A program made the translations under genes and the position numbers. The notes below the pieces were generated by a model. It did no database searches and was not told the origin of the DNA. It worked only from the letters and a program-made list of their open reading frames with translations. A DNA stretch of 22,464 nt. Origin: a virus. Location: IMG/VR virus record IMGVR_UViG_3300013094_000296, positions 1 to 22,464 of that record; one strand, written 5' to 3'. Positions 2,705 to 22,464 of the stretch are shown piece after piece (position 1 is the stretch's first letter; the number at the start of each line of letters is the position of its first letter).

Positions 2705-2948
2705 CTTTCGGTTTCGTAAGACGGTAATGCGCAACGACTACACTAAGATATTTAGTACACCAGGGCGTCGCAGGTCGGCGCCCTGGAGAAAGGTGTTAGC
2801 CAGTAAGGTAAAGCATTTCAGGTCAGCGAGAACCCGTCGCGCAAACACTGGGTGGAAGAACAAGATGTTTAACAGGCTGGCCAAGTTTAAGTTTTTTATT
2901 CGATTTGGCTTAAAGAAACGATCACCAATTTCAAGGTTCAGAAGATGA
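2697..2948 (+). CDS. Very basic small protein of unknown function
   Basis: 83 residues with an unusually high Arg/Lys content throughout (examples: GRRRSAPWRK, RSARTRRA, FGLKKRSPISRFRR) and few acidic residues. The start overlaps the previous gene by 8 bases (ATGCATGA) and the stop overlaps the next gene in ATGA. This packing is the main argument that it is a real gene. The charge would suit nucleic-acid binding, but no named fold is recognisable. Confidence 0.6.
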   Translation: MHDFRFRKTVMRNDYTKIFSTPGRRRSAPWRKVLASKVKHFRSARTRRANTGWKNKMFNRLAKFKFFIRFGLKKRSPISRFRR

Positions 2949-3592
2949 CAAAAAAGTTTAACTACTACCACGTTGACGCAGGGCACTTCAAGGTGCAGAT
3001 CAAGCTGTGCTTCGACAACTACGAGTTTCAAAAAATACTATCCGACCATAACATCAGCACCAAGACGACGGCGCTTGACTACGGCATCGGTGAAACACAC
3101 TATATTAGCGACGGGCGTGAGGGCATCATCGTGCTTGCGTTTGACTTGGAGGAGTGCGACCAAGGGCCGGCGTACTTGGCGGGCGTGGTTGCGCATGAGG
3201 CCACACACTGCGTCTCGCGCGTGTTTGAGCACATCGGCGAGGAGGTAGACGAGATTGGCGAAGAGTCTCGCGCCTACCTGACGGAGCACATTGTTATGCA
3301 GTTAACTCAGGCGGTTATTTACGAAAAGGAAAAACGTGCTAGAAAAGGACTTGGAGGCAAAGCTAAACAAAAAAATAAAGCAGCTGGGGGGACTGAGTTA
3401 CAAGTGGATCAGCACGATCTCGGGGGTGCCGGATCGGATAGTGATACTGAACAACAGGGTACAGTTCGTGGAACTAAAGACGATGACAGGAAAATTGTCA
3501 GCACGTCAGGAGTTGGTCTTCAGCGAACTAGAGGCGCACGGATTCCCAGTGGTAGTCATAAGAAACACATCAGACGTGGAGAAATTAATTGA
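2945..3592 (+). CDS. HExxH metallopeptidase-like protein with long out-of-frame overlap
   Basis: 215 residues as read. Residues 1-130 look like an ordered domain: a strand-rich start, GREGIIVLAFDLEE, then VVAHEATHCVSRVFEHIGEE, which contains an HEATH zinc-peptidase motif at 84-88. The following EESRAYLTEHIV (about 106-117) may give the third metal ligand. I know similar short phage proteins with HExxH and EE..AYL, but not their substrate. From residue 131 onward the frame runs across the VRR-NUC gene in another phase and its sequence (Gly, Asp, Gln and Arg rich) reads like a shadow. Even so, its stop (TGA 3590-3592) overlaps the TTG start of the next gene, as if coupled. The start ATG overlaps the previous stop (ATGA). 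Confidence 0.72.
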   Translation: MTKKFNYYHVDAGHFKVQIKLCFDNYEFQKILSDHNISTKTTALDYGIGETHYISDGREGIIVLAFDLEECDQGPAYLAGVVAHEATHCVSRVFEHIGEEVDEIGEESRAYLTEHIVMQLTQAVIYEKEKRARKGLGGKAKQKNKAAGGTELQVDQHDLGGAGSDSDTEQQGTVRGTKDDDRKIVSTSGVGLQRTRGARIPSGSHKKHIRRGEIN

Positions 3593-9877: not shown

Positions 9878-9913
9878 GGGAGTGTCCGTAGAAACTGCGG
9901 CCTCCCTTTTTTT
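9878..9913 (+). terminator. Intrinsic terminator after the DUF2815 gene
   Basis: Outer stem GGGAG (9878-9882) with CTCCC (9902-9906), inner stem CCGTAG (9886-9891) with CTGCGG (9895-9900) around an AAA loop, separated by a TGT/C internal loop, followed by seven T (9907-9913). Confidence 0.75.
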
Positions 9914-9944
9914 ACCAACCAATAACAATAAAAGGAAAATAATT

Positions 9945-11840
9945 TTGGACCAGTACCGAGAATACATTGCAGCAAGTAGATATGCCCGTTTCATTGACGA
10001 AAAGGGCAGACGTGAAACTTGGGAAGAAACCGTAACACGCTTTGTAGAATACATTTTTGCAAGAACACCAAAGTTAAATTCAAACCTCGGTGCGGATTAC
10101 AACACAGATAAACTTAAAAAAGAAATACACAAATCAATTTTAAACCACGAAGTTATGCCCTCGATGCGGGCTATGATGACTTCAGGAAAGGCCGCTGATC
10201 GTGACAATACGTGCATATACAACTGCAGCTATCTCCCCGTTGACGACGTTAAATCGTTTGACGAGGCCATGTTCATCCTGTTGTGTGGGACAGGTGTGGG
10301 ATTCTCAGTCGAATCCAAGTACGTCAACCAGCTGCCTGACGTGCCAGAGACGCTTTACACAAGCAGCCACGCCATCAAAGTACATGACAGCAAAGAAGGA
10401 TGGGCTAAGTCCCTTCGACTTATTATTGCGCACCTCTATGCTGGAGAGATCCCAAAGTGGGACGTATCGGCAGTAAGACCAGCTGGCGCGCGTTTAAAGA
10501 CGTTTGGTGGGCGTGCAAGCGGACCACAGCCGTTGGAAGACTTATTTGCGTTTACTGTTAATATTTTTAAAGGTGCAAGGGGTCGTAAGTTAAACTCTCT
10601 CGAGTGCCACGATTTAATGTGTAAAATTGGTGAGGTTGTGGTTGTGGGCGGCGTCCGTCGCTCGGCTATGATTTCACTATCTGATTTAGACGATGAAAGG
10701 ATTCGACATGCTAAAGCTGGACCATGGTGGGAAACCGCACCTCACCGTGCGCTCGCCAATAATAGCGCGGTTTATAATGAAACGCCTACAGTTGGAAAGT
10801 TCATGGAGGAATGGCTCTCTTTGTATAACTCGCACTCCGGAGAGCGAGGTATTTTTAATCGAGAAGCTGCGCGGAAGACCGTGGAGAAGTACGGTCATCG
10901 TGACCCTAACTACGAGTTTGGTACGAATCCTTGTTCTGAAATTATTCTCCGTCCGTACCAATTTTGTAATCTTACTGAAGTTGTAATTCGACACGATGAC
11001 ACAAAGGAATCATTGCTGCGTAAGATTAGACTGGCCTCTATACTTGGTACAATCCAGGCCACATTTACAAAGTTTCCCTACCTGCGGAAAGTGTGGCAGC
11101 GCAATACGGAAGAAGAACGATTACTTGGTGTATCCCTCACCGGAATCTACGACAACAAACTTACATGCACACAAGGAGAAGGGTTAAATGTATTGCTCGC
11201 CGAACTTAGAGAAGAGGCTAGACGCACAAATGAAGAATATGCAGAACTGCTTGGAATACCTAAGAGTACTGCAATCACTGCCGTCAAGCCATCTGGAACT
11301 GTCTCCCAACTTGTCGATAGCGCTAGTGGAATCCATCCTCGCCATTCTAAATATTACATTAGAAGAGTTCGGGGGGATTCAAAAGACCCTCTCACCCAAT
11401 TCTTAATCCAACAAGGTGTACCAAATGAACCATGTGTTTACAAGCCCACGCAGACCACCGTATTTTCCTTCGCCCAACGAGCGCCTGACGGACTCACTCG
11501 AGAGGACGTTGACCCAATATCACATCTACAACTATGGCTTACATACCAGCGTCATTACTGTGAGCATAAACCTTCAGTCACTATCTCGGTGGAAGAAAAA
11601 GATTGGCCGGCTGTTGGGGCTTTTACTTGGGAGCATTTTTCAGAAATATCCGGAGTTTCATATCTCCCTTATGATGGGGGCTCTTATAGGCAAAGTCCTT
11701 ACGAAAGTTGCACAGAAGAAGAGTACAACGTTCTTAAAGCAAGTATCCCGACAATTGACTGGGAGGCATTTAAAGAAATAACAGATTTAACTGAGGGCGC
11801 TCAAACATTAGCTTGTGTTGGAGGTCAGTGCGAAATTTAA
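9945..11840 (+). CDS. nrdJ: Adenosylcobalamin-dependent (class II) ribonucleoside-triphosphate reductase
   Basis: 631 residues. It reduces ribonucleotides to deoxyribonucleotides using B12, and needs no oxygen and no second subunit. By position, C94 (NCSYLP) and C341 (QFCNL) are the redox pair, C330 and E332 in NPCSEI are the radical-bearing and catalytic residues, and the C-terminal CVGGQC (624-629) is the reductant cysteine pair. PSGTVSQLVDSASGIHPRH and LLGVSLTGIYDN are also typical. I start it at TTG 9945, with AAGGA at 9932-9936 spaced by about 9; the longer GTG start at 9882 would lie inside the preceding terminator hairpin. It is shorter than the Lactobacillus monomer (about 740). A terminator follows directly. 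Confidence 0.95.
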   Translation: MDQYREYIAASRYARFIDEKGRRETWEETVTRFVEYIFARTPKLNSNLGADYNTDKLKKEIHKSILNHEVMPSMRAMMTSGKAADRDNTCIYNCSYLPVDDVKSFDEAMFILLCGTGVGFSVESKYVNQLPDVPETLYTSSHAIKVHDSKEGWAKSLRLIIAHLYAGEIPKWDVSAVRPAGARLKTFGGRASGPQPLEDLFAFTVNIFKGARGRKLNSLECHDLMCKIGEVVVVGGVRRSAMISLSDLDDERIRHAKAGPWWETAPHRALANNSAVYNETPTVGKFMEEWLSLYNSHSGERGIFNREAARKTVEKYGHRDPNYEFGTNPCSEIILRPYQFCNLTEVVIRHDDTKESLLRKIRLASILGTIQATFTKFPYLRKVWQRNTEEERLLGVSLTGIYDNKLTCTQGEGLNVLLAELREEARRTNEEYAELLGIPKSTAITAVKPSGTVSQLVDSASGIHPRHSKYYIRRVRGDSKDPLTQFLIQQGVPNEPCVYKPTQTTVFSFAQRAPDGLTREDVDPISHLQLWLTYQRHYCEHKPSVTISVEEKDWPAVGAFTWEHFSEISGVSYLPYDGGSYRQSPYESCTEEEYNVLKASIPTIDWEAFKEITDLTEGAQTLACVGGQCEI

Positions 11841-11978: not shown

Positions 11979-12203
11979 ATGAGTGTATTTAGAAGTAATA
12001 AAGTGGTTTGTGATTTTTGTGGTAAAACATTACACGAACACGAAATTCAATGTTATAACTCAAACAACTATGAACCTATGGTTCCCGTAAATAATTGTGC
12101 TGTTCAATTGCATGCTGTAAAAGTAGATTTGTGTCATAGCTGTATTGCCCCATTACAAGATGTTTTTATGACTGAATTTAAAAAGCATAAGGAGCACTTA
12201 TGA
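11979..12203 (+). CDS. Small zinc-ribbon protein, 74 aa
   Basis: The ATG at 11979 has AGGAG at 11969-11973 with a spacing of 5. The open frame reaches further upstream, but that part lies within the promoter. Two cysteine pairs, CDFCGK (11-14) and CHSC (about 52-55), make a likely zinc ribbon, with GKTLHEHEIQCYN between them. The stop overlaps the polymerase start (ATGA). It may bind DNA or a replication partner; that is inferred from the context. Confidence 0.78.
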   Translation: MSVFRSNKVVCDFCGKTLHEHEIQCYNSNNYEPMVPVNNCAVQLHAVKVDLCHSCIAPLQDVFMTEFKKHKEHL

Positions 12204-14137
12204 AAGAACTTATCTACAGCATTGACTTTGAGACACGTAGCAGAATTGATCTAACTGATCGTGGGCTAGATGTATACGCCAACGACCCTAGCACGGAGGT
12301 GTTGTGTATTGCGTTTGGTACCCACCCAGAAGGTATTTGTTTATGGACCAAAGACGGTCTTGAAGAACATACAAGTTGGCTAAAACGCTTGCTTGACCAC
12401 GTCCGCAACGGTGGCAAGATCCAAGCATGGAACGCCATGTTTGAGTACGCTATCTGGAACTGTGTCTGCGTGCCTAAGTACGGCTGGCCCCCACTAAAGT
12501 TGGAGCAGTGCATTGACTCGATGGCAATAGCAGCAGCCAACAACATACCGCAGGCACTTGGTGACTGTTCTATATTCTTGAATAGCGAACACCAAAAAGA
12601 CACCCGTGGTAGGTACCTCATTAACACACTCAGCAAGCCAAACAAAAAGGGTGAGTTTAACGAAGACCCTGTTCTAATGTCCGAGTTGTTCACGTATTGT
12701 GTACAAGACGTAAAAACTGAACAGTCAATTGTCAGCCAGTTACGCCCGCTGTCAGATAGTGAGCAGAAGATTTGGGAACTCACTCAGCGCATTAATTTGC
12801 GCGGTGTACCAGTTGATCCAGACGAGCTCCAAAACGCCGTAAAAGCCGTCCAGAGCGCACAAAAGAAGCTGGATGATGAGTTACTACTGCTGACTGGTTG
12901 TAAGCCCTCAGAACGTGCTAAATTGCTCGCTTGGATTAACAAAAACAGTCCCGACAAGCTGGAAAATTTGACCGCTGAGACAGTTGAAAAAATGTTGCAG
13001 TGCAACATAGCACCGGCAGTCAAACGTGCATTACAACTTCGCCAAGAAGGAAGCCAAACTAGCGTGGCTAAGTACGCTAAAATGTTGGAGATACAGAGAG
13101 ATGGAAGAATACGAAACACGTTGGTCTATCATGGCGCGTCTACTGGTCGTTGGGCTAGTCGTGGCGGACTTAACTTACAGAATATTGCAAGGCCTAACCA
13201 ATCGGACGAGGAAATTAAGAGATCAATCCCAAGAGTCTTTGGTCAGGGAGTTGGGACCATGGGAGAACTCTCTAGCTTGGTGCGTAGCGCTATTAAGGCT
13301 CCAGAACGCAAAGCCTTCGTGGACGTGGATTTTTCGTCCATCGAGAATAGAGTCGGAGTGTATCTTGCCGATCAAAAAGATAAAGTCGAACTGTTTAGGA
13401 AGGGATTAGATGAGTATAAGGTTTTTGCGTCGCAGTCTCTATATAACGTACATTATGATGAAGTTACAAAAGACCAGCGGCAAATTGCCAAGTCGGCAGT
13501 TCTTGGTGCGCTTTTTGGCCAAGGAGCTAAGGGCCTTGTTAAGTACGCTGAAGGGATGGGGGTGGTTATGTCGGAGGTACAAGCCAAAAACGCAGTAGAT
13601 AAATATCGTGCATCGTATCCTAAAGTAAGAGCACTTTGGGCTGCGTGTGAACAGGCCGCAATTGATGCGATAACAACACCCGGCGTACCATTCAAGGCTG
13701 GCAGCAAGTTGGTGTTAAAGGTTGCCAAGGGTGCACTATGGATGCAGTTACCGTCGGGCAGATTAATCTGTTGGCAGAGGCCACAGCTCGAGCTGGCAAT
13801 CACACCCTGGGGGCAAGAAAAGCATGGTGTCACTATTCACAGCCAGAACACTTACACTAGGGCTTGGAGTCGAAACCAGCTGATTGGGTCCAGTATCTTT
13901 CAGTCTGGGGTCCAAGGGACAGCCCGTGATTTTCTTGCCTTTGCTATGTGTAGCCTTGAGGATGCCGGTTACAATGTGTGTAACAGTATTCACGATGAGG
14001 TACTCCTATTAGTTGAAGAACAAAACGCGAAGTCCTCACTGGCGGAGGTCATAAAGATTATGACTACGCCACCAGCGTGGGCTCCCGATTTTCCTCTTGC
14101 AGCTGAAGGTTGGCACGGTAAACGCTACAGGAAGTGA
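12200..14137 (+). CDS. Family A DNA polymerase (phage DNA polymerase I type)
   Basis: 645 residues, the main replicative polymerase. The N-terminal 3'-5' proofreading domain carries exo I SIDFETRS (D9, E11), exo II AWNAMFEYAIW (about 76-86) and exo III YCVQDVKTEQ (D170). The polymerase domain has motif A VDVDFSSIENR (D377, E382), motif B RQIAKSAVLGALFGQG (R427, K431) and motif C IHDEVLLL (H598, D599, E600). The motif B position normally held by Tyr/Phe before GQG is filled by Phe. There is no N-terminal 5'-3' exonuclease, as usual for phage enzymes of this size. The gene is coupled to the zinc-ribbon gene and driven by the promoter at 11889. Its stop abuts the convergent gene. Confidence 0.95.
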   Translation: MKELIYSIDFETRSRIDLTDRGLDVYANDPSTEVLCIAFGTHPEGICLWTKDGLEEHTSWLKRLLDHVRNGGKIQAWNAMFEYAIWNCVCVPKYGWPPLKLEQCIDSMAIAAANNIPQALGDCSIFLNSEHQKDTRGRYLINTLSKPNKKGEFNEDPVLMSELFTYCVQDVKTEQSIVSQLRPLSDSEQKIWELTQRINLRGVPVDPDELQNAVKAVQSAQKKLDDELLLLTGCKPSERAKLLAWINKNSPDKLENLTAETVEKMLQCNIAPAVKRALQLRQEGSQTSVAKYAKMLEIQRDGRIRNTLVYHGASTGRWASRGGLNLQNIARPNQSDEEIKRSIPRVFGQGVGTMGELSSLVRSAIKAPERKAFVDVDFSSIENRVGVYLADQKDKVELFRKGLDEYKVFASQSLYNVHYDEVTKDQRQIAKSAVLGALFGQGAKGLVKYAEGMGVVMSEVQAKNAVDKYRASYPKVRALWAACEQAAIDAITTPGVPFKAGSKLVLKVAKGALWMQLPSGRLICWQRPQLELAITPWGQEKHGVTIHSQNTYTRAWSRNQLIGSSIFQSGVQGTARDFLAFAMCSLEDAGYNVCNSIHDEVLLLVEEQNAKSSLAEVIKIMTTPPAWAPDFPLAAEGWHGKRYRK

Positions 14138-14148
14138 TTAACACTTCC
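14130..14148. terminator. Hairpin at the convergent gene junction
   Basis: GGAAGTG (14130-14136) and CACTTCC (14142-14148) form a perfect 7-bp stem. The loop ATTAA holds the last base of the polymerase stop (TGA 14135-14137) and the whole stop of the opposing gene (TAA on the - strand, 14138-14140). No T-tract follows on either side, so it may slow polymerases or protect 3' ends rather than terminate alone. Confidence 0.5.
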
Positions 14149-17100
14149 ACTTACGCAGCGCCTTATTGATGCGTGAGTCTGGGTCGTTGGCTGTTTCAGC
14201 CGATGTTAATTTTTTCTTAGCACCTTCCATACGCGCACAGAATGAATCTTTACGTGACCCACCCTCGGGCTGCGGTGCCTTCAAGTGCGCGCCGTGTGCC
14301 TTGTTATACGAAGCGCGGCCCTTAGCGTTCAAGCCACCCTCTGGGTTTTTGCCCTCCGAACGCTGCCAAGCCTCACCGCCACCGGCTAGGTGCATCAATC
14401 CGCCCTCTGCCTTAGTGATGTCTGGCACGGTTGGATCGTACGTACCTTGGTTGCCAGTAGCAGATTTGATTTGGCGTGGGTCATAGACACCTAAGTTTTT
14501 AACGCCACCCTCACTAACATAATAGCTATCATGGCCCATATCTTTAATGGTGTTTTGTATTTGTGGGTGTTCTATATACGACCAACTACCCTCACCAACT
14601 CTTTTACCATAGTTTTTAGCATAACTTGGGCCAATAGATTCTGTAAGTCTATTTTTTAATTCTTCTATATGTTGGGGATTTTCGTAATCAAACGGATTAG
14701 TAACATTTACGTGAACGGGCATAATGTTTCCGCCTTTACTTGAACCACCAGCGTCAATAGTGAAACTATCTGCAAATTTTTTATTTGGTGACACGAATAC
14801 ACCACGATGGCCGGGATCAAATTCTGAAAAATCATATCTAGTGCCATGGTACATTGGCGTTTTAACTACACTATTTTCTAAAAACTTAGCCTTGTTCGCT
14901 TCCCGCTCCGCCAGCGGGAGAATCTTTTTTGCTAGTTCGGCTAGGCCTCCGCCAGCGTAGTGCTTGCCCTCAAAGTCAGACAACTGTAATCGTGGATCTT
15001 CCCAGTGTGATGTCTCTAAGCCCTGCTTAGGTACCATGACTAATGGACCAGATTGTAGTTTCTGTTCTGCGTGGAATACAGGCAACCCTGTAGACTTATC
15101 AAAGAACTGGGAGTGTGCGCGCGGGTCCATACCAATCTGTGTCCAGTTAGGATCCTTTAGGTACTCTTCCATCATGCGGCGCACTTCGTCATCGTGTGTG
15201 CCTACGTTGGTGCCCTTCATAAGCGCAAAGGGGCTCTTTCCTGACCCGATCTCGGCTCCCATGGGGGTTAGGGCTTGCTCCTTGGTTCCAAGGCCAACAC
15301 GGACCGCCTGGTTAGGTTTAGAACTAAAATCCACGTCGGTTAGGTGGCCTGTGCGGTTGTAGCTGATCGGCTTACCTGACGCATCGTGCACCGTGTCAAC
15401 ATACACGCCGTGCTGTGTATACGCTGGAATGTCTAACCGATTACCGACCTGCATACCGGCGGGTACATCGGCCAGTGCTTTAGGCTGTTTGTTAGACATT
15501 AAAGCATTACGAATCTGCTCGTCTGTATAGTTTGGTGGCAGCTCGTCCCACTTACGAATAGGTAAGTGCGAACGCATAACACCAATACGCTCGGCGTTAC
15601 TAATGTTGCCTTTTAAATAGTCTTCAAGCGCCTGCGCTACTTTAGGTATTTGGCTTACCGATTTACCACCAGCATACCCTTCAACCTCACCACCTTCTGC
15701 GTATGCACCTGGAGTTTTAAGAAACTGTAAAGTACCATAAGGATCATTAGGATCTACCTTACCTTGTTTAACGGCTTCGTGGTACGCACCGACACGGTTA
15801 ATTAATTCATCGTTTACAACTTCAGACACACCGGCGTTTCTTCTTTCTAATGCACCAATTGCCATTTGATGAATTTTTCCTTCAGGGTCATTAGGATAAC
15901 GAGCCTTCATTTCATTAAACACATTGGTGTACGGTTTATTTAGTAAAACATGCGCAGGTGTATTTTGTCCTAAATTACCTAAATAATTACCTAAAAAATC
16001 TGTAGAATAAGATTCATTTTTTGATGGTTGAACTTTTGCACCAGGTTGCATTTGAATAGCAGTATTTCCCGCAAAACCTCTTTCTAAGTTTGCTATTTCT
16101 GGTATTGTGTGGGCTGCTGAAATATCCTCAGCATTAACACCTAAGGCACGCTGATTGTCTTTAAGTCTTTGTAACCTAATAAATGCTTTTCTTGCATCAC
16201 CACCGGAAGCGTTTAAACCTTCGCCAGTTAAAAGTTGGTTGTAAGCATCAGGATGGGATAAATCAAGCAAGTTTGACATAATAGGCTTGCCTTGTTTTTT
16301 TTGTGAGCGTAGCCATTCAGTCATTATTGATAAATCTTCCGGACTACGCTCGGCTTGTTTGTGAAGATCCCAGTATGTTTGAAAAGTTGGTACAGCAAAA
16401 TCTTCACTATATTTACCCATTGACGAGGGCAACATAACTACTTGTCCTGTTCCGCCAGTTTTTTCACCTTCTTGTGAAGCAATGTTGGCGCGTGTTTGCA
16501 ACCTACCAGCTATAGCTGGTCCAGAAGCTCCAACAACACCCTGTTCCATGTGTTCAATATCTCTAGCGTAAGGAACACCGCCATGAGTAATAATATTACT
16601 TGTTAAAGGTCTTCCAGAAACACTAAGTATTTGTTGGTTGCGATGTGTTGCATCCCATGGAGTAATATTTATATTAGCACCACGTATGTCTTCTAAACTA
16701 ATTGGTTTTTCAGGTGCTATACCACCCAAATCTTTTAACTGAAACCTAGTGCCAACTAACGGATTAGGATTTTTTGGGGTATGTTCCAAAAAACCTGTAA
16801 CATTTTTAACAATGTCTCCAACTAATTTACCACCAGCATATCCTTGAATAGATCCACCAGCTGCGTGACCTTCTGGAAACATTTTACGCTCTAGGTAATT
16901 AACAACCGGCGCACCAGCACCGATTATAGGACCAGCAGCGCGTGCTATAGCTTGATATTTTCTAGGCAACATATTTGCAATTGCAGGCGCAACATACGGC
17001 GCCGCCGCACCAGTGGCAGATACACCAGCTTCAAGCGGGTTTTGAGACTGCAACATGTCTGAAATATTATAGCCAGTCATAAAACGTTTTGTTGCAGGTG

Positions 17101-17794
17101 TTTTACCAAAATTTAAAGCACCTTCACCAATTTGTGCGCCCAATGTAGGGCCAACTTGTGTTTGAGATAAACGTCGTTGGCGTAGGTCAGCGTTCATCCT
17201 AGCCTTATTTTCTAATTCTTTTTGTGCTTGGGCTTCTACAGACTTAATGTTGCTGTACTCGGATTCTGGTATTAAAAAATTTGACGTACCCGGTTTTATT
17301 TTATAGCCCGGATTTTTTCTTTCTAACTCATCGGCCTGCCTGTGCAGTTGAGCTTCATGTTCTTGGCTAGTTCCACCAAGGTAACCACGCTTGTACTGAC
17401 CACTCTCCGGTGTCTTACCCATGGCCCAGTTAACAACGTCTCCAGGACCTTCAGGCCTTGGAGGTTGACCCGCCTTAATGGTACGCGCCTCAATCTCACT
17501 AGGAGTTGCAAAGGTGCGTTGTGTCGGCATTATCCCCGATGGTTTTTCAATCGGTGCGTTTACACCCGCAGCACGTTTAAATGGCTCAACTATTAAATTT
17601 TTAGCGCCGTATGTAAGTGCTTTTGGACCCAAAGCGGCAGTGGTTCCCACCATTGCGTTGGTAACATTACTTACAGGTTCAGACGCAGCTGGGGTTGTTG
17701 GTGAAGGTTGGCCTGCAGTTTCTTCTGCGTGTGCCTTTGCAAACTCTTCTTCTTCGTGAGCTCTTTGAAATTCTAGTTCTTCAGGGGTCGCCAT
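14138..17794 (-). CDS. Large mosaic polyvalent-type virion protein with ADP-ribosyltransferase-like domain
   Basis: 1218 residues. The N-terminus is Glu/Ala rich (EELEFQRAHEEEEFAKAHAE) and leads to an Ala/Pro/Gly-rich region with a weakly hydrophobic stretch near 260-300. Gly-rich joints (GGSIQGYAGGK about 309-322, EGGEVEGYAGGK about 700-712, HYAGGGLAELA, AEGGLMHLAGGG) separate blocks. Residues 774-942 (VGNRLDIPAY, WTQIGMDPRAHSQFF, QSGPLVMVPK) resemble a domain of phage and plasmid polyvalent proteins. Residues 979-1125 resemble ART-PolyVal: MYHGTRYDF (H983), VFVSPNKKFADSF, VNVTNPFDYENP, KNLGVYDPRQIKSATGN. The tail (1142-1218: AWQRSEGKNPEGGLNAKGRA, SFCARM, INKALRKWKC) is DUF6321-like. It is probably virion-borne and may be ejected into the host; that is inference. 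The start ATG lies 3 bases after the preceding stop. Confidence 0.78.
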   Translation of the reverse strand: MATPEELEFQRAHEEEEFAKAHAEETAGQPSPTTPAASEPVSNVTNAMVGTTAALGPKALTYGAKNLIVEPFKRAAGVNAPIEKPSGIMPTQRTFATPSEIEARTIKAGQPPRPEGPGDVVNWAMGKTPESGQYKRGYLGGTSQEHEAQLHRQADELERKNPGYKIKPGTSNFLIPESEYSNIKSVEAQAQKELENKARMNADLRQRRLSQTQVGPTLGAQIGEGALNFGKTPATKRFMTGYNISDMLQSQNPLEAGVSATGAAAPYVAPAIANMLPRKYQAIARAAGPIIGAGAPVVNYLERKMFPEGHAAGGSIQGYAGGKLVGDIVKNVTGFLEHTPKNPNPLVGTRFQLKDLGGIAPEKPISLEDIRGANINITPWDATHRNQQILSVSGRPLTSNIITHGGVPYARDIEHMEQGVVGASGPAIAGRLQTRANIASQEGEKTGGTGQVVMLPSSMGKYSEDFAVPTFQTYWDLHKQAERSPEDLSIMTEWLRSQKKQGKPIMSNLLDLSHPDAYNQLLTGEGLNASGGDARKAFIRLQRLKDNQRALGVNAEDISAAHTIPEIANLERGFAGNTAIQMQPGAKVQPSKNESYSTDFLGNYLGNLGQNTPAHVLLNKPYTNVFNEMKARYPNDPEGKIHQMAIGALERRNAGVSEVVNDELINRVGAYHEAVKQGKVDPNDPYGTLQFLKTPGAYAEGGEVEGYAGGKSVSQIPKVAQALEDYLKGNISNAERIGVMRSHLPIRKWDELPPNYTDEQIRNALMSNKQPKALADVPAGMQVGNRLDIPAYTQHGVYVDTVHDASGKPISYNRTGHLTDVDFSSKPNQAVRVGLGTKEQALTPMGAEIGSGKSPFALMKGTNVGTHDDEVRRMMEEYLKDPNWTQIGMDPRAHSQFFDKSTGLPVFHAEQKLQSGPLVMVPKQGLETSHWEDPRLQLSDFEGKHYAGGGLAELAKKILPLAEREANKAKFLENSVVKTPMYHGTRYDFSEFDPGHRGVFVSPNKKFADSFTIDAGGSSKGGNIMPVHVNVTNPFDYENPQHIEELKNRLTESIGPSYAKNYGKRVGEGSWSYIEHPQIQNTIKDMGHDSYYVSEGGVKNLGVYDPRQIKSATGNQGTYDPTVPDITKAEGGLMHLAGGGEAWQRSEGKNPEGGLNAKGRASYNKAHGAHLKAPQPEGGSRKDSFCARMEGAKKKLTSAETANDPDSRINKALRKWKC

Positions 17795-17797
17795 GTA

Positions 17798-19795
17798 TTA
17801 TTTTCCGTTCGCTTTTTTCCAAGCCTCGTACCTAGCTTGTTTTTCTGGATCACTAAACCTTGGGGTTGCTGTAGTTTTTGCTGCGTTAGCTGCAGTTTCA
17901 GGAGATAACTTTTCAACCTTAACTCCTGTTCCGGCTGTTAGTTTTTGTTCCCCTTCAAGGTGTTTGTCTAACATACCGTCGTATTCTCTTGACTGCATAA
18001 AGTCACCCCATTGTTTGCCTGGGTGTTGTGGCAACCAATCATCACGGAATGTTTTATGTGCGTCCAAGACAAACTCGGCGTTACGTTTTGTAATAGAGGC
18101 ATAAAGTTTGTTTGTCTCCGGAGTAAATGACGGGCTAACGCCTTTACCTTGACTGCCTAATTTTTCTAAGCCAATACCAAGTCTAGCACCCTTAAACATT
18201 TGCGCGGTGTATTCAATACCTAACTTAGAAGCGTCGGTTTGTAGCTGTTGTAGTTTAGATCTTTCCGCCTCGTTAAATCCTAACGCAGAGGCAGCTTTTT
18301 CAAACTCTTCCTGACCAAATAATTTAGCTGTGCCCATATTCAAACCTTTAACAAGCAGCGTAGCGGCCTTGTTGCCACCCTCGTAGTAGCCCATTAACTT
18401 TTTGTATGTTGGGTCGTTAGCCAAAGTAATTACACGGTCGGCGGCACCAATTGTGTCAATCGCTTGTTGTTTGTGTTGCGGGCCAGCGCCGTAATCTTTA
18501 CCATATAATTCTGCAGCGGCTTGATCTTGTTTAGCCGTGGTTTCTATATTAGTTTCCGCTTGTTTTTTATTTATGTCGGCCTGTGTTTGTGCGTTCTTAG
18601 CTTCTTGTGCAATAAATTCTGTTGACCCTTTAGGGAACGGATTTGGCAACGGGGTTGCATTTGGAGTTGATGGTGCAACATCACTCATTACCTTACTTAC
18701 GTATGCCATCGGATCACTTTTCACAAACCCGCCATACTGCGCCATTGCCTTGTTGTAATCCCCACCATTTTTCTTAACCAGCTGCTGGATGTAATAGTCC
18801 GCAGCGGCTCTTGACTCATCAGGATCAAACGGATTAAATTTAACGCCCTGTTTGTGCAGCATAGCAACTGTATGGGGATCAAATTGATATTTACCCATTG
18901 TTTTGGTGCTAGGATTAACAGCATACGGATCGTTTGAACTTTCAGCCATACCTAAGTTGTCTAATAGTTTGGCTGGCGTACCGTATGATTTTTTAGGATC
19001 AAACGCACCAGTAGGCGTAGCCGCTGTGTTTGGAGGTTTATTAAACGCTGGATCGGTCGGACCACCAAGTGTATACTCATGCTTATAGCCATTTTCATCA
19101 ATGTGTGTATATGTACCATAAGTTTTTTCGAGTGCTTGACGTTTAAGTCGGTCTTTATCAGGACCCTCTGGTAATGAGTTAATGTACGACATATTTTTTT
19201 CAAGATCACTGCGGTGAATTGATGTATCTTGTGCTAGTTTAGCAAGTTTATCCCAATCACCGTCTCTTGCCAATTGCATACCTCGACCTTGCAACGCCGC
19301 CGGTAAACTTTGAATCATTTGCATCGCTGGAGACATTGAGTCAGCTTGGGTAGGTTGTCCTTGACCAGCTTGGGTAGGTTGTCCTTGACCAGCTTGGGTA
19401 GGTTGTCCTTGACCAGCCATAAATGCATTAGTTTGTGCTTGTTGTTTTTGCTGGCCCTGTAACGACGCAATGTTAGCGCGCATATTAAACAGGCTTTCTT
19501 CGCGCGCACGTTTCTCTGCATCGCGTGCAGCCATAGCGCTACCAGGATCGCGCGACGTAATCGCCACGGCGTCCTTCATACCCTCTAGGAACGTGTTAAA
19601 TCGCCCGAGCCCAGAGTTTGGTGTGCGTCGGTCGTACTCATCCTGCATGGCCTTTAAAAGCGCTTCGCTTTGCATCGGGCCCTTAACGTTTAATTTTTGA
19701 CCAGCAATGTTAAGTGTATGCCCCGCGTTTATGGTGCCGCTAGTATCCGCAGGAGTTTCCGTCGGTTCTGATTGGTTAAGTGTCTCTAACGCCAT
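17798..19795 (-). CDS. Virion/ejection-type protein with lytic transglycosylase-like segment
   Basis: 665 residues, Gln/Ala/Lys rich and mostly helical. Residues 276-355 look like an SLT-type lysozyme fold: NLGMAESSNDPYAVN with Glu285 as candidate catalytic acid, then TMGKYQFDPHTV and ADYYIQQLV...DYNKAMAQYGGF. Such domains in internal virion proteins (for example T7 gp16) open a path through peptidoglycan during DNA ejection. Three copies of GQGQPTQA (about 128-151) form a short flexible insert. The long C-terminal helical region (QTQADINKKQAETNIETTAK) fits an internal core protein. The start has TAGGAT about 7 bases upstream. A cell-lysis endolysin is less likely, given the size and neighbours. 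Confidence 0.75.
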   Translation of the reverse strand: MALETLNQSEPTETPADTSGTINAGHTLNIAGQKLNVKGPMQSEALLKAMQDEYDRRTPNSGLGRFNTFLEGMKDAVAITSRDPGSAMAARDAEKRAREESLFNMRANIASLQGQQKQQAQTNAFMAGQGQPTQAGQGQPTQAGQGQPTQADSMSPAMQMIQSLPAALQGRGMQLARDGDWDKLAKLAQDTSIHRSDLEKNMSYINSLPEGPDKDRLKRQALEKTYGTYTHIDENGYKHEYTLGGPTDPAFNKPPNTAATPTGAFDPKKSYGTPAKLLDNLGMAESSNDPYAVNPSTKTMGKYQFDPHTVAMLHKQGVKFNPFDPDESRAAADYYIQQLVKKNGGDYNKAMAQYGGFVKSDPMAYVSKVMSDVAPSTPNATPLPNPFPKGSTEFIAQEAKNAQTQADINKKQAETNIETTAKQDQAAAELYGKDYGAGPQHKQQAIDTIGAADRVITLANDPTYKKLMGYYEGGNKAATLLVKGLNMGTAKLFGQEEFEKAASALGFNEAERSKLQQLQTDASKLGIEYTAQMFKGARLGIGLEKLGSQGKGVSPSFTPETNKLYASITKRNAEFVLDAHKTFRDDWLPQHPGKQWGDFMQSREYDGMLDKHLEGEQKLTAGTGVKVEKLSPETAANAAKTTATPRFSDPEKQARYEAWKKANGK
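19342..19413 (-). repeat. Three tandem copies of a 24-bp unit
   Basis: Perfect 24-bp units at 19342-19365, 19366-19389 and 19390-19413, plus three more matching bases. They encode the eight-residue repeat AGQGQPTQ on the - strand and keep the frame. Confidence 0.95.
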
Positions 19796-19798
19796 ATA

Positions 19799-20806
19799 TT
19801 ATCCTATAGTTGGGTCTGTTGGATCTACCACGGGGGTTGGGTTCGCATTTGGGTCTGGTGCTGGCGGTACATCCACGGGAGCTGGTATATTACCACTAGG
19901 ATCAGTAGGTGACGGTGATCCGCCCGGTGTTACGGGCTGTGTTGTGTTTGAAGAGCTACTATTAAATAAATTACTAAATAGCCCTGGGGTATAACCTGCG
20001 GCACCCTTAGTACCCGAACCAAATAAAGAAGCGTACAGCCCTGGATTTGTAATAGGGTTGCCGTTCTTGTCTAATGTTGTGCTTGGTAATAACGCATTTA
20101 GTCCACCAGCCACAGCGGTTCCAAGTCCGGTAATTGATTGTAAACCCGACGGTGTTTGTGTTGTTGCTATCGTCTGCGGCGCCGTTAATGAGGCTAAAAT
20201 GTTTCCATAGTTAGCAGCATTTGTGTATGGTGCGGTCATTTGTTCTTGACCTACGTTCATGGCGTTAGTAATTCCAAGGTTGGCTACGTTGCCTTGGTTG
20301 GCCGCAGCTCCAACGCCGGTCTGTTGGTTTTGTAACGCGGCCTGCATCTGTTGTGCTTGCAATTGTGACAGTGCATTGGCCGCGGTAGTATCCACTGCAG
20401 TTTGGCCGCGCAAGCTGCCAAAGTTACCGGAGCCAATAGCCCCGGCATTAGATGGTGCAAGCGTGGTTGGTAGTAGCTGATTAAACGCTTGGTTTTGTGC
20501 TTGAAACAAGCCACCCATTGCCGTGCTTGTATTTGGTGTTACAGCGCCAGTATTTGGGTCTGTAATCCATGGGTTAGCTGCACCTGTAGCAATACTTCCC
20601 AGTGTGTTTGAGGCCGATGTGAAAGGGTTATTTGGCCCGCTTAGTGTGTTAATTGCGCCCTGTGCGGTTGTCTGCCCTAATGTTGGCGCCGCAGCTGCCG
20701 CAGTATTAGCCGCGTTAAGTACGTTAGTCTGCGCGGCATTATACCAATCCGGTAGCGTCGTGGTCGACGTGCCGCTTGTTTGTGTTAAATCAGTTAGTGC
20801 GCTCAT
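19799..20806 (-). CDS. Ala/Gln/Thr/Asn-rich probable virion protein
   Basis: 335 residues. The N-terminal two-thirds is Ala/Gln/Asn rich and helical (NAAQTNVLNAANTAAAAAP, ANALSQLQAQQMQAALQNQQ), with GSGNFGSLRGQ in the middle. The last 60 residues are Pro/Asp/Thr rich and disordered (GGSPSPTDPSGNIPAPVDVP). There is no signal peptide or enzymatic motif. Composition and position, between two large structural-type genes with gaps of 2-3 bases, suggest an internal virion or head-tail protein of podovirus type. AAAAAGG precedes the start by about 11 bases. Confidence 0.68.
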   Translation of the reverse strand: MSALTDLTQTSGTSTTTLPDWYNAAQTNVLNAANTAAAAAPTLGQTTAQGAINTLSGPNNPFTSASNTLGSIATGAANPWITDPNTGAVTPNTSTAMGGLFQAQNQAFNQLLPTTLAPSNAGAIGSGNFGSLRGQTAVDTTAANALSQLQAQQMQAALQNQQTGVGAAANQGNVANLGITNAMNVGQEQMTAPYTNAANYGNILASLTAPQTIATTQTPSGLQSITGLGTAVAGGLNALLPSTTLDKNGNPITNPGLYASLFGSGTKGAAGYTPGLFSNLFNSSSSNTTQPVTPGGSPSPTDPSGNIPAPVDVPPAPDPNANPTPVVDPTDPTIG

Positions 20807-20808
20807 AT

Positions 20809-22464
20809 TTATTTAACCTTTTTCTTTGCTTCAAGTAAGTAACCCAATGCGCCCTTAGAATCTGGGGGCAAGTGATTTACGTCGGCATGACGTTTATGCC
20901 GCCGAATTGTTTTTAAGAACTCGTCTAGCACCTTAGCGCCGGCGTCATTTGATCCGTTGCCTAGTCCAGACACCACATCCGCTGGTATGACAAACTCACC
21001 GTTAGCCAACATGGCCGGAATAGAGTCTGACGTACCGTCGCCATCACCAGTCACATACGTGTGCTTGATGGAATTTAAACCACCCTCGCTATAAAACTCG
21101 GGATTATGTCCTTCGATCTCGCCACCTTCTCTATGACCAAAGGGTATCAATCCCGTCGCTGGGTGTGGTATGTTACTAGTAAAATTTTGTAGGTACTGTG
21201 GGTGGCCGCGTGTTACCGACGAACCATCTGCATAACCCATTATACCACCTTCTGCAGCGTATTGCATTTGTGGAAGGGCTTGTGTACTATACTGGGCCGG
21301 ACTAATCATAGTGTCTGTAAAGGTTGGCTGCCCAACCAAATGAATTGCAGATCCCTGTGTAACGCCCGACGTCGGAGCACCACTAACGCCAGTTAATCCA
21401 CCCGATGCAAAATGTGTAAGGTGTCCCCCTTCTTTTATTTGTGGGATTGTCTGTTCGTATGTTTGTTGTGGTGATATCATAGTGTCTGTAAAGTTCGGTT
21501 GTCCTACAAGTTGTATTTGCTGCCCTTTTGATACGTGCGGCGTAAAATCTAACGCCGTTAATCCCGTGTTTGGTGTTGACGCTACGGGTGCCACTGGGTT
21601 CAACACCGGCGCAGGTGCAGGTGCAGGTGCAGGTGCAGGTGCAGGTGTAGGTGTAGGTGTAGGTACTGGTTTAACTATTGGCAACGGTGTTGGCGTTGGT
21701 GGTACTATTGGTAACGGTGTCGGTGTTGGTGCATTAGCATCAACCGTTATTGTGCCCATATCAGGCAAATTGTTTTCAGTTGGCGCATTAGCGTCAATCG
21801 TTATTGTTCCAGCGTCAGGCAAATTGTTTTCAGGGTTGAGCGCTATAATTGCCCCATTAACATCACCAGAAGCCAAGGCTGAAATAACATCTGGGTTACC
21901 GTTTGTAACCGCGGTAACTAAATCTTGGTTACCAGAGGCTACGGCTGTTGCTAAAGCATTTTGGTTGGCCTGTGCTACGGCATCTAGTGTGCTTGCGGTT
22001 GTATCTACTGGAGCAGTTGTGTCTGTTGTTGCTGTTGTCAAAGGCCCAGGAGCAGTTGTATCTACTGGAGCAGTTGTATCTACTGGAGCAGTTGTATCTA
22101 CTGGAGCAGTTGTATCCACTGGAGCAGTTGTATCTACTGGAGCAGTTGTATCTACTGGAGCAGTTGTATCTACTGGAGCAGTTGTATCTACTGGAGCAGT
22201 TGTATCCACTGGAGCAGTTGTATCCACTGGAGCAGTTGTCAAAGGCCCAGGAGCAGTTGTGTCTGTTGTTGCTGTTGTATCTGTTGTTGCTGTTGTATCT
22301 GTTGTATCTGTTGTTGCTGTTGTCAAAGGCCCAGGAGCAATTGTATCTACTGGAGCAGTTGTATCTGTTGTTGCTGTTATCAAAGGCCCAGGAGCAATTG
22401 TATCTACTGGAGCAGTTGTATCTGTTGTTGCTGTTGTCAAAGGCCCAGGAGCAATTGTATCTAC
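20809..22464 (-). CDS. Repeat-rich structural protein (5' end outside window)
   Basis: At least 551 residues are read through the window edge; the TTG at 22440 is only a leucine codon within a repeat, so the true start lies beyond 22464. The visible N-terminal part is low-complexity repeats (TTAPVD, TTATTD, APGPL). Then come an Ala/Asn region, two copies of NNLPDxGTITxDANAPT, a Pro-rich hinge of TP and AP dipeptides, and two copies of LVGQPxFTDTMISP each followed by a Gly-rich joint. The C-terminus (GDGDGTSDSIPAMLANGEFV, IPADVVSGLGNGSNDAGAKV, then RRHKR) is a phage structural module I recognise by its xSDxIPAML..GE[FY]V core, function unknown. The Pro/Thr hinge suggests an elongated or surface-exposed protein. 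Confidence 0.75.
   Translation of the reverse strand, partial: VDTIAPGPLTTATTDTTAPVDTIAPGPLITATTDTTAPVDTIAPGPLTTATTDTTDTTATTDTTATTDTTAPGPLTTAPVDTTAPVDTTAPVDTTAPVDTTAPVDTTAPVDTTAPVDTTAPVDTTAPVDTTAPVDTTAPGPLTTATTDTTAPVDTTASTLDAVAQANQNALATAVASGNQDLVTAVTNGNPDVISALASGDVNGAIIALNPENNLPDAGTITIDANAPTENNLPDMGTITVDANAPTPTPLPIVPPTPTPLPIVKPVPTPTPTPAPAPAPAPAPAPVLNPVAPVASTPNTGLTALDFTPHVSKGQQIQLVGQPNFTDTMISPQQTYEQTIPQIKEGGHLTHFASGGLTGVSGAPTSGVTQGSAIHLVGQPTFTDTMISPAQYSTQALPQMQYAAEGGIMGYADGSSVTRGHPQYLQNFTSNIPHPATGLIPFGHREGGEIEGHNPEFYSEGGLNSIKHTYVTGDGDGTSDSIPAMLANGEFVIPADVVSGLGNGSNDAGAKVLDEFLKTIRRHKRHADVNHLPPDSKGALGYLLEAKKKVK
21611..21670 (-). repeat. Hexanucleotide repeats encoding Ala-Pro and Thr-Pro runs
   Basis: Six GCAGGT units are followed by GTAGGT units, read on the - strand as Thr-Pro then Ala-Pro dipeptides. 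The hexamer length preserves the frame. Confidence 0.9.
22061..22240 (-). repeat. Ten tandem copies of an 18-bp unit
   Basis: Ten contiguous units of TCTACTGGAGCAGTTGTA, varying mainly by a T/C change (TCTACT or TCCACT) and the last base. Each encodes APVDTT. Near-identity points to recent expansion. Confidence 0.95.
22325..22464 (-). repeat. 57-bp higher-order tandem repeat running off the window
   Basis: Units begin at 22325, 22382 and 22439 with an exact 57-bp period. Each combines one AAAGGCCCAGGAGCAATTG block, one 18-bp APVDTT-type unit and a TCTGTTGTTGCTGTTGT block, which makes 19 residues. One base differs between the first two copies (GTTGTC/GTTATC). Confidence 0.9.

What the first reader, a model, noticed from the sequence alone, without database searches (positions are those of the whole stretch)
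14411..14860. ADP-ribosyltransferase-like domain embedded in a probable virion protein
Residues about 979-1128 of the 1218-aa - strand protein carry YHGT, VFVSP, NPFDYENP and VYDPRQIKSATGN, the pattern I associate with ART-PolyVal, a domain of polyvalent effector proteins in phages and conjugative elements. A DUF6321-like tail follows and another polyvalent-type block precedes it. If the protein enters the cell with the DNA, it could ADP-ribosylate a host target at the moment of infection. The sequence shows the motifs; the delivery route and target are inference.
Basis: partly seen in the sequence, partly recalled or inferred. Interest (0 to 1): 0.82.

Follow-up and report, generated by a model that had tools for sequence, protein, structure and literature searches.

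The report
Phage ADP-ribosyltransferase in shufflable protein
A freshwater-type phage encodes, next to the protein that helps it breach the cell wall, a long multi-module protein carrying a real ADP-ribosyltransferase domain; the domain is a known kind, but the way its modules are reordered, swapped or dropped between related phages suggests an exchangeable set of proteins carried into the host.

Summary
Residues 981-1118 of the 1218-aa minus-strand protein match Pfam ART-PolyVal (PF18760, E=2.4e-17, above cut-off), and 1148-1216 match DUF6321 (E=1.6e-20). An AlphaFold model (pLDDT 90) matches the ART fold; its best PDB hit is 6KYF, the ADP-ribosylating anti-CRISPR AcrIF11 (E=3e-5, fold only), followed by MbcT and PARPs. 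Among 62 non-redundant domains His983 is kept in 61 and Asp1089 in all 61 with a residue there. The strand-2 Tyr described for polyvalent ARTs is Phe (56/62), so this subfamily is H-F-D; AcrIF11, described as H-F-H-D, is active. Delivery is inferred: the gene follows an SLT internal-virion-like gene, and distant relatives lie between terminase and portal. The main addition is a conserved slot (virion genes, module protein, convergent polA and RNR) in about 18 other phage contigs, where modules N, X/Y, Z, ART and DUF6321 occur in different orders, fused or split, and one complete slot lacks ART, although polA/RNR are mostly 71-86% identical. Junctions carry a glycine linker (AEGG..GYAGGK). Best reading: a modular polyvalent effector, probably virion-borne, whose ART modifies an unknown host target early in infection. 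New member of a known kind.

The parts
14138..17794 (-). Module-protein gene, 1218 aa, order N-Y-Z-ART-DUF6321
16859..17794 (-). Module N (res 1-312), Gly/Ala-rich with two moderately hydrophobic stretches near 258-301; no Pfam family; 47-50% identical in L002 and L022, mostly absent elsewhere
16826..16867 (-). Linker 1 (res 310-323) HAAGGSIQGYAGGK
15701..16819 (-). Module Y (res 326-698), no Pfam family; distant homologue of module X that fills this place in other phages
   Evidence: (hhalign prob 98.2)
15662..15703 (-). Linker 2 (res 698-711) YAEGGEVEGYAGGK
14966..15661 (-). Module Z (res 712-943), no Pfam family; 68-87% identical across phages that share the slot (53% in L042) and found in different positions
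14945..14965 (-). Linker 3 (res 944-950) KHYAGGG
14441..14854 (-). ART-PolyVal domain (res 981-1118)
14846..14848 (-). His983, strand 1, predicted NAD-site residue
   Evidence: 61/62 relatives
14795..14797 (-). Phe1000, strand-2 position that is Tyr in the published polyvalent ART signature
   Evidence: F in 56, W in 4, Y in 2 of 62
14669..14698 (-). NPFDYENPQH motif (res 1033-1042), start of the helical part specific to this subfamily
   Evidence: conservation partly biased because the search pattern used it
14528..14530 (-). Asp1089 at start of strand 5, predicted catalytic acid
   Evidence: 61/61 relatives; model places residue 135 (=1089) just before strand 136-141
14495..14512 (-). Glu1095 and Lys1099-Asn1100, subfamily-specific residues
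   Evidence: 89%, 87%, 85% of 62
14375..14413 (-). Linker 4 (res 1128-1140) KAEGGLMHLAGGG
14147..14353 (-). DUF6321 domain (res 1148-1216), basic C-terminal tail
17798..19795 (-). Upstream virion-type gene with SLT transglycosylase domain (res 268-354), matches phrog_342 internal virion protein with endolysin domain
19799..20806 (-). Upstream gene of the same slot (335 aa), no family
20809..22464 (-). Repeat-rich upstream gene (runs off the window) with weak tape-measure-type matches and the same Gly linkers
12200..14137 (+). Convergent DNA polymerase A gene bordering the slot
9882..11840 (+). Ribonucleotide reductase gene next to polA, conserved border of the slot

Best explanation
The gene encodes a modular polyvalent effector of a podovirus-like phage. 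It is expressed late with the virion genes, probably packaged, and brought into the host with the DNA alongside the SLT protein. Its ART-PolyVal domain (H983-F1000-D1089) uses NAD+ to ADP-ribosylate one or a few host proteins early in infection, either to blunt a defence or to redirect a host machine, in the way AcrIF11 and T4 Alt do. The Gly-rich AEGG..GYAGGK linkers separate independent modules that are exchanged, reordered, split into separate ORFs or dropped between related phages in one conserved slot. Shown by sequence or structure computation: the domain, its fold, the conserved His and Asp, the late-gene context, and the shuffling and optional presence. Inferred: packaging, ejection, catalysis and target.
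For: Pfam PF18760 E=2.4e-17. AF2 model pLDDT 89.8 with best PDB fold hit 6KYF (E=3.2e-5), then MbcT and PARPs. H983 in 61/62 and D1089 in 61/61 relatives. The published polyvalent ART site is H (strand 1), Y (strand 2), D (strand 5) (PMC5512222). The active AcrIF11Pae1 is described as H-F-H-D, and D115A abolishes CRISPR inhibition (PMC12421852). SLT/internal-virion-like neighbour. Among distant relatives at least 14 of 44 upstream neighbours match terminase large-subunit families and 10 of 34 downstream neighbours match a portal family. The best viral-structure hit is a phage protein named LT_GEWL-domain protein, 42% identical over the ART. The slot with permuted or absent ART is bounded by polA/RNR. 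ART is only 41-45% identical between the window and L018/L002, while Z is 81-84%, the DUF6321 module 86-96% and RNR 79-86%, consistent with fast, arms-race-like change.
Against: No biochemical, proteomic or genetic data. Strand-2 Tyr is Phe, and the position occupied by the PARP-type catalytic Glu in many other family members is Asn1100, so activity could be weak or lost. The zincin peptidase common in polyvalent proteins is absent from this protein (no HExxH). In L124 the ART is a separate ORF downstream of the module protein, so fusion is not needed. P0001 itself matches no known virion-protein family.
Confidence: 0.62

Rival explanations
1. The ART acts only after late expression inside the infected cell (for example superinfection exclusion or late host takeover) and is not delivered by the virion.
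For: The delivery route rests on gene position only; in L124 the ART is a free-standing ORF.
Against: Placement beside SLT, terminase and portal genes; an LT_GEWL-ART protein; published argument that phage polyvalent proteins and many phage ARTs sit with virion genes (PMC5512222, PMC9503650).
Confidence: 0.2
2. The domain is a degenerate ART that binds NAD+ or ADP-ribose, or a partner, but is not catalytic.
For: Tyr to Phe at strand 2 and Asn at the PARP-Glu-like position in nearly the whole subfamily. Detached pieces with only the FDYENPQH half occur in L006 and L008.
Against: H983 and D1089 are near-invariant although the rest is only 34-56% identical. AcrIF11Pae1 is active with H-F-H-D (PMC12421852). 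Loss of function would not be expected to keep extra near-invariant E/K/N residues.
Confidence: 0.15
3. The long protein is mainly structural (internal scaffold or ejection conduit) and the ART is a passenger.
For: N module is Gly/Ala-rich with moderately hydrophobic stretches; it lies next to the SLT protein.
Against: Module order and content vary freely and modules can be split or dropped, unlike an obligatory structural part.
Confidence: 0.1

Closest known systems
ART-PolyVal (PF18760) domains of phage polyvalent proteins (Iyer et al. 2017, PMC5512222)
   Same: Sequence family, conserved His and Asp, multi-domain host protein, late-gene context, sometimes several copies per protein
   Different: This subfamily has Phe instead of the strand-2 Tyr plus conserved FDYENP and E..KN motifs; the protein that carries it has modules X/Y and Z that match no Pfam family and has no zincin peptidase
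AcrIF11, ADP-ribosylating anti-CRISPR (PDB 6KYF; PMC12421852)
   Same: Best PDB fold match; described key residues H-F-H-D parallel H983-F1000-D1089
   Different: No detectable sequence similarity; the solved AcrIF11 chain is 137 residues, not part of a multi-module protein; target identity cannot be transferred
T4 Alt, head-packaged ART
   Same: Proposed logic: ART carried in the virion and acting on host proteins at once
   Different: Alt belongs to the R-S-E clade (PMC5512222), not the H-Y-D clade; it is not a polyvalent protein
T7 gp16-type internal virion proteins with a transglycosylase domain
   Same: The neighbour P0002 matches phrog_342, internal virion protein with endolysin domain
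   Different: In the window the ART is on the next gene, not on the SLT protein; P0001 itself matches no ejection-protein family

Membership tests
ART-PolyVal (PF18760) | Profile match above the curated cut-off | tested here: met
   64.4 bits against 31.2; all 53 relatives match at E up to 0.1
ART-PolyVal (PF18760) | ART fold | tested here: met
   AF2 model pLDDT 89.8; PDB hits 6KYF, MbcT, PARPs
ART-PolyVal (PF18760) | Active site H (strand 1), Y (strand 2), D (strand 5) | tested here: inconclusive
   H983 and D1089 conserved; strand-2 position is Phe in 56/62 relatives. Two of three residues as published; Phe is also listed for the active AcrIF11Pae1
ART-PolyVal (PF18760) | NAD+-dependent ADP-ribosyl transfer | not testable with these tools
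   needs biochemistry
Phage polyvalent effector proteins | Several unrelated domains in one polypeptide | tested here: met
   N, Y, Z, ART, DUF6321
Phage polyvalent effector proteins | Encoded among late/virion genes | tested here: met
   SLT neighbour; terminase/portal neighbours in relatives
Phage polyvalent effector proteins | Packaged and delivered into the host | not testable with these tools
   no proteomics available
AcrIF11 anti-CRISPR | Sequence homology | tested here: not met
   no match to an anti-CRISPR chain at E up to 10 by phmmer, nor at E up to 5 by profile search
AcrIF11 anti-CRISPR | Same ART fold variant and H-F-..-D residues | tested here: inconclusive
   best fold hit E=3.2e-5, TM 0.60 on target; residue superposition not available
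T4 Alt / VIP2 clade | R-S-E active site | tested here: not met
   strand-1 residue is His, 61/62

The most novel reading that the evidence does not exclude
The slot between the SLT virion gene and polA is a swappable cargo bay of the ejected proteome, in which linker-delimited effector modules are exchanged like cassettes. The H-F-D ART would be a virion-delivered enzymatic anti-defence (AcrIF11-like logic) acting before any phage gene is expressed.
Probability: 0.17. Interest if true: 0.82.

Novelty: new member of a known kind. Interest (0 to 1): 0.5.

Why it matters
It supplies a well-defined H-F-D ART subfamily and a natural series of related phages in which the same genomic slot holds the ART in different positions, as a separate ORF, or not at all. 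That makes it directly testable whether such domains are packaged and which host process they hit. It also exposes two unknown modules (Z, highly conserved, and X/Y) that travel with the ART.

Tried and rejected
AF2 of modules X-Z-DUF6321 taken from L123 gave a poor model (pLDDT 60, pTM 0.40) with no credible PDB match, so no function is claimed for X/Y, Z or DUF6321. A first mixed alignment of module fragments was misaligned and dropped (A6). Sequence searches of the PDB for P0001, for Z and for the ART gave only chance hits. NCBIfam and PADLOC gave no credible match for the ART. Module Y has no close relative in the viral collection by pattern search; distant ones came from other loci. A link to PARP-type H-Y-E chemistry was considered: Asn1100 sits where many other family members have Glu or Gln, but the published H-Y-D assignment and the invariant Asp1089 made Asp the better candidate. 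An in-cis zincin protease was looked for and not found. Pattern choice biases the FDYENP and MYHGT conservation, so the argument rests on positions outside those patterns (1000, 1089, 1095, 1099, 1100), apart from His983, which lies in the MYH pattern. Module boundaries of Y, Z, X and the DUF6321 module were cut by eye at the linkers, so the junction enrichment of GG (about 33 against 4.7 per 1000 residues) is partly circular. An attempt to name the one relative with SLT and ART in the same ORF failed. Searches were input errors.

Full report
Observation. The minus-strand ORF 14138-17794 encodes 1218 aa. Pfam finds ART-PolyVal at 981-1118 (E=2.4e-17, 64.4 bits against a cut-off of 31.2) and DUF6321 at 1148-1216 (E=1.6e-20) and nothing else.

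Fold and active site. An alignment of 53 ART domains from the window and related phage loci gave an AF2 model of window residues 955-1140 with pLDDT 89.8 and pTM 0.84. The best solved match is 6KYF (E=3.2e-5, TM 0.60 on the target), the crystal structure of the anti-CRISPR AcrIF11 according to PMC12421852, followed by MbcT and PARP catalytic domains. By sequence there is no match to AcrIF11. In 62 non-redundant domains, His983 is kept in 61 and Asp1089 in all 61 with a residue there. The strand-2 residue is Phe in 56, Trp in 4 and Tyr in 2. Glu1095, Lys1099 and Asn1100 are kept in 85-89%. Iyer et al. 2017 (PMC5512222) give the polyvalent ART site as His-Tyr-Asp in strands 1, 2 and 5. In a combined alignment, members without the FDYENP motif mostly have Tyr or Trp at strand 2 and often Glu or Gln where this group has Asn1100. 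The window thus belongs to an H-F-D subfamily. Phe does not argue strongly against activity: PMC12421852 describes AcrIF11Pae1 as H-F-H-D, and D115A abolishes its CRISPR inhibition.

Context. The gene lies directly after a gene with an SLT domain that also matches the PHROG 'internal virion protein with endolysin domain'. It abuts the convergent polA gene (14137/14138). A relative, the 59-kb contig IMGVR_UViG_3300027741_000071, has the same order, with terminase, portal and head genes on the same strand as the module gene. In more distant loci carrying this ART, at least 14 of 44 upstream neighbours match terminase large-subunit families and 10 of 34 downstream neighbours match a portal family. 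One of 37 ART proteins also carries an SLT domain. The best match among predicted viral structures is a phage protein named LT_GEWL-domain protein, 42% identical over the ART. These facts support, but do not prove, virion packaging.

Module shuffling. The protein consists of N, Y, Z, ART and DUF6321 modules. About 18 other phage contigs share the slot, bounded by the same upstream genes and/or by convergent polA and RNR (polA 55-82%, mostly 71-76%; RNR 74-86% identical). The slot content differs. The window and L018 have Y-Z-ART-DUF6321. L002 has N-X-ART-Z-DUF6321. L022 has N-X-ART-DUF6321. L115 has X-ART-Z-DUF6321. L033 has Z-ART. L113 has ART-Z-ART. L116 has X-DUF6321 in one ORF and ART-Z in the next. 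L123 has X-Z-DUF6321 and no ART. L124 has X-Z-DUF6321 and the ART as a separate downstream ORF. X and Y are distant homologues (hhalign probability 98%). Identity to L018 is a mosaic: DUF6321 module 96%, Z 81%, ART 41%, Y 34%, N not detectable.

Linkers. Junctions between modules carry a Gly-rich linker, typically AEGG..GYAGGK; 47 of 51 junctions contain GG (boundaries partly defined by it). Relatives encode the same GYAGGK with different synonymous codons, so the conservation is at the protein level. In the window two copies match at 21 of 24 bases, which could also help recombination. No HExxH peptidase motif is present in the protein.

Mechanism. The most likely reading is a polyvalent effector packaged with the virion whose ART modifies a host target early in infection. 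T4 Alt is the precedent for delivery and AcrIF11 for an H-F-D type enzyme, but neither target can be transferred by analogy. The low identity of ART compared with its flanking modules, its permutation and its optional presence fit an accessory effector under changing selection. Catalysis, packaging, ejection and target are inferred.

Known or new. ART-PolyVal domains and mosaic polyvalent proteins are described (PMC5512222, PMC9503650). This is a new member, with a variant active-site signature, in a phage group with a clear swappable slot. Full-text searches found no paper naming DUF6321 and only one naming ART-PolyVal; papers outside that library were not searched. 'Freshwater-type' in the plain sentence is my guess from the relatives' collection, not a tool result.

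Noticed in passing
14137/14138: polA (+) and the module gene (-) end on adjacent bases, tail to tail with no intergenic space.
   Followed up: no
2945-3592 (+): A 215-aa protein with HEATH (HExxH) and no Pfam match; a similar protein is present in the relative (L129:4560-5213). It could be a trans-acting zincin-type peptidase; a processing role is speculation.
   Followed up: partly
14966-15661 (-) and L002, L016, L018, L033, L113-L125: Module Z, about 235 aa, 68-87% identical across phages whose other slot modules differ, with no Pfam family; a distant member (L066) shows a weak match to Phage_L5_gp82 (PF25735), as do three of 37 whole ART proteins.
   Followed up: partly
20809-22464 (-): Neighbouring gene starts with long TTAPVDTTAPVDTT repeats and contains similar AEGG..GYADG linkers.
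   Followed up: no
L006:9707-12907 and L008:6309-8948: Detached FDYENPQH pieces occur without the His-strand half of the ART; in L008 in the same protein as a complete ART, in L006 in the gene after one with two ARTs. Meaning unknown.
   Followed up: no
L066:5064-10190: Module protein with two ARTs also carries a GDSL-lipase-like block (read by eye; one of 37 proteins hits GDSL); other relatives carry PcfJ, PBECR5, ParB and GP88 domains.
   Followed up: no
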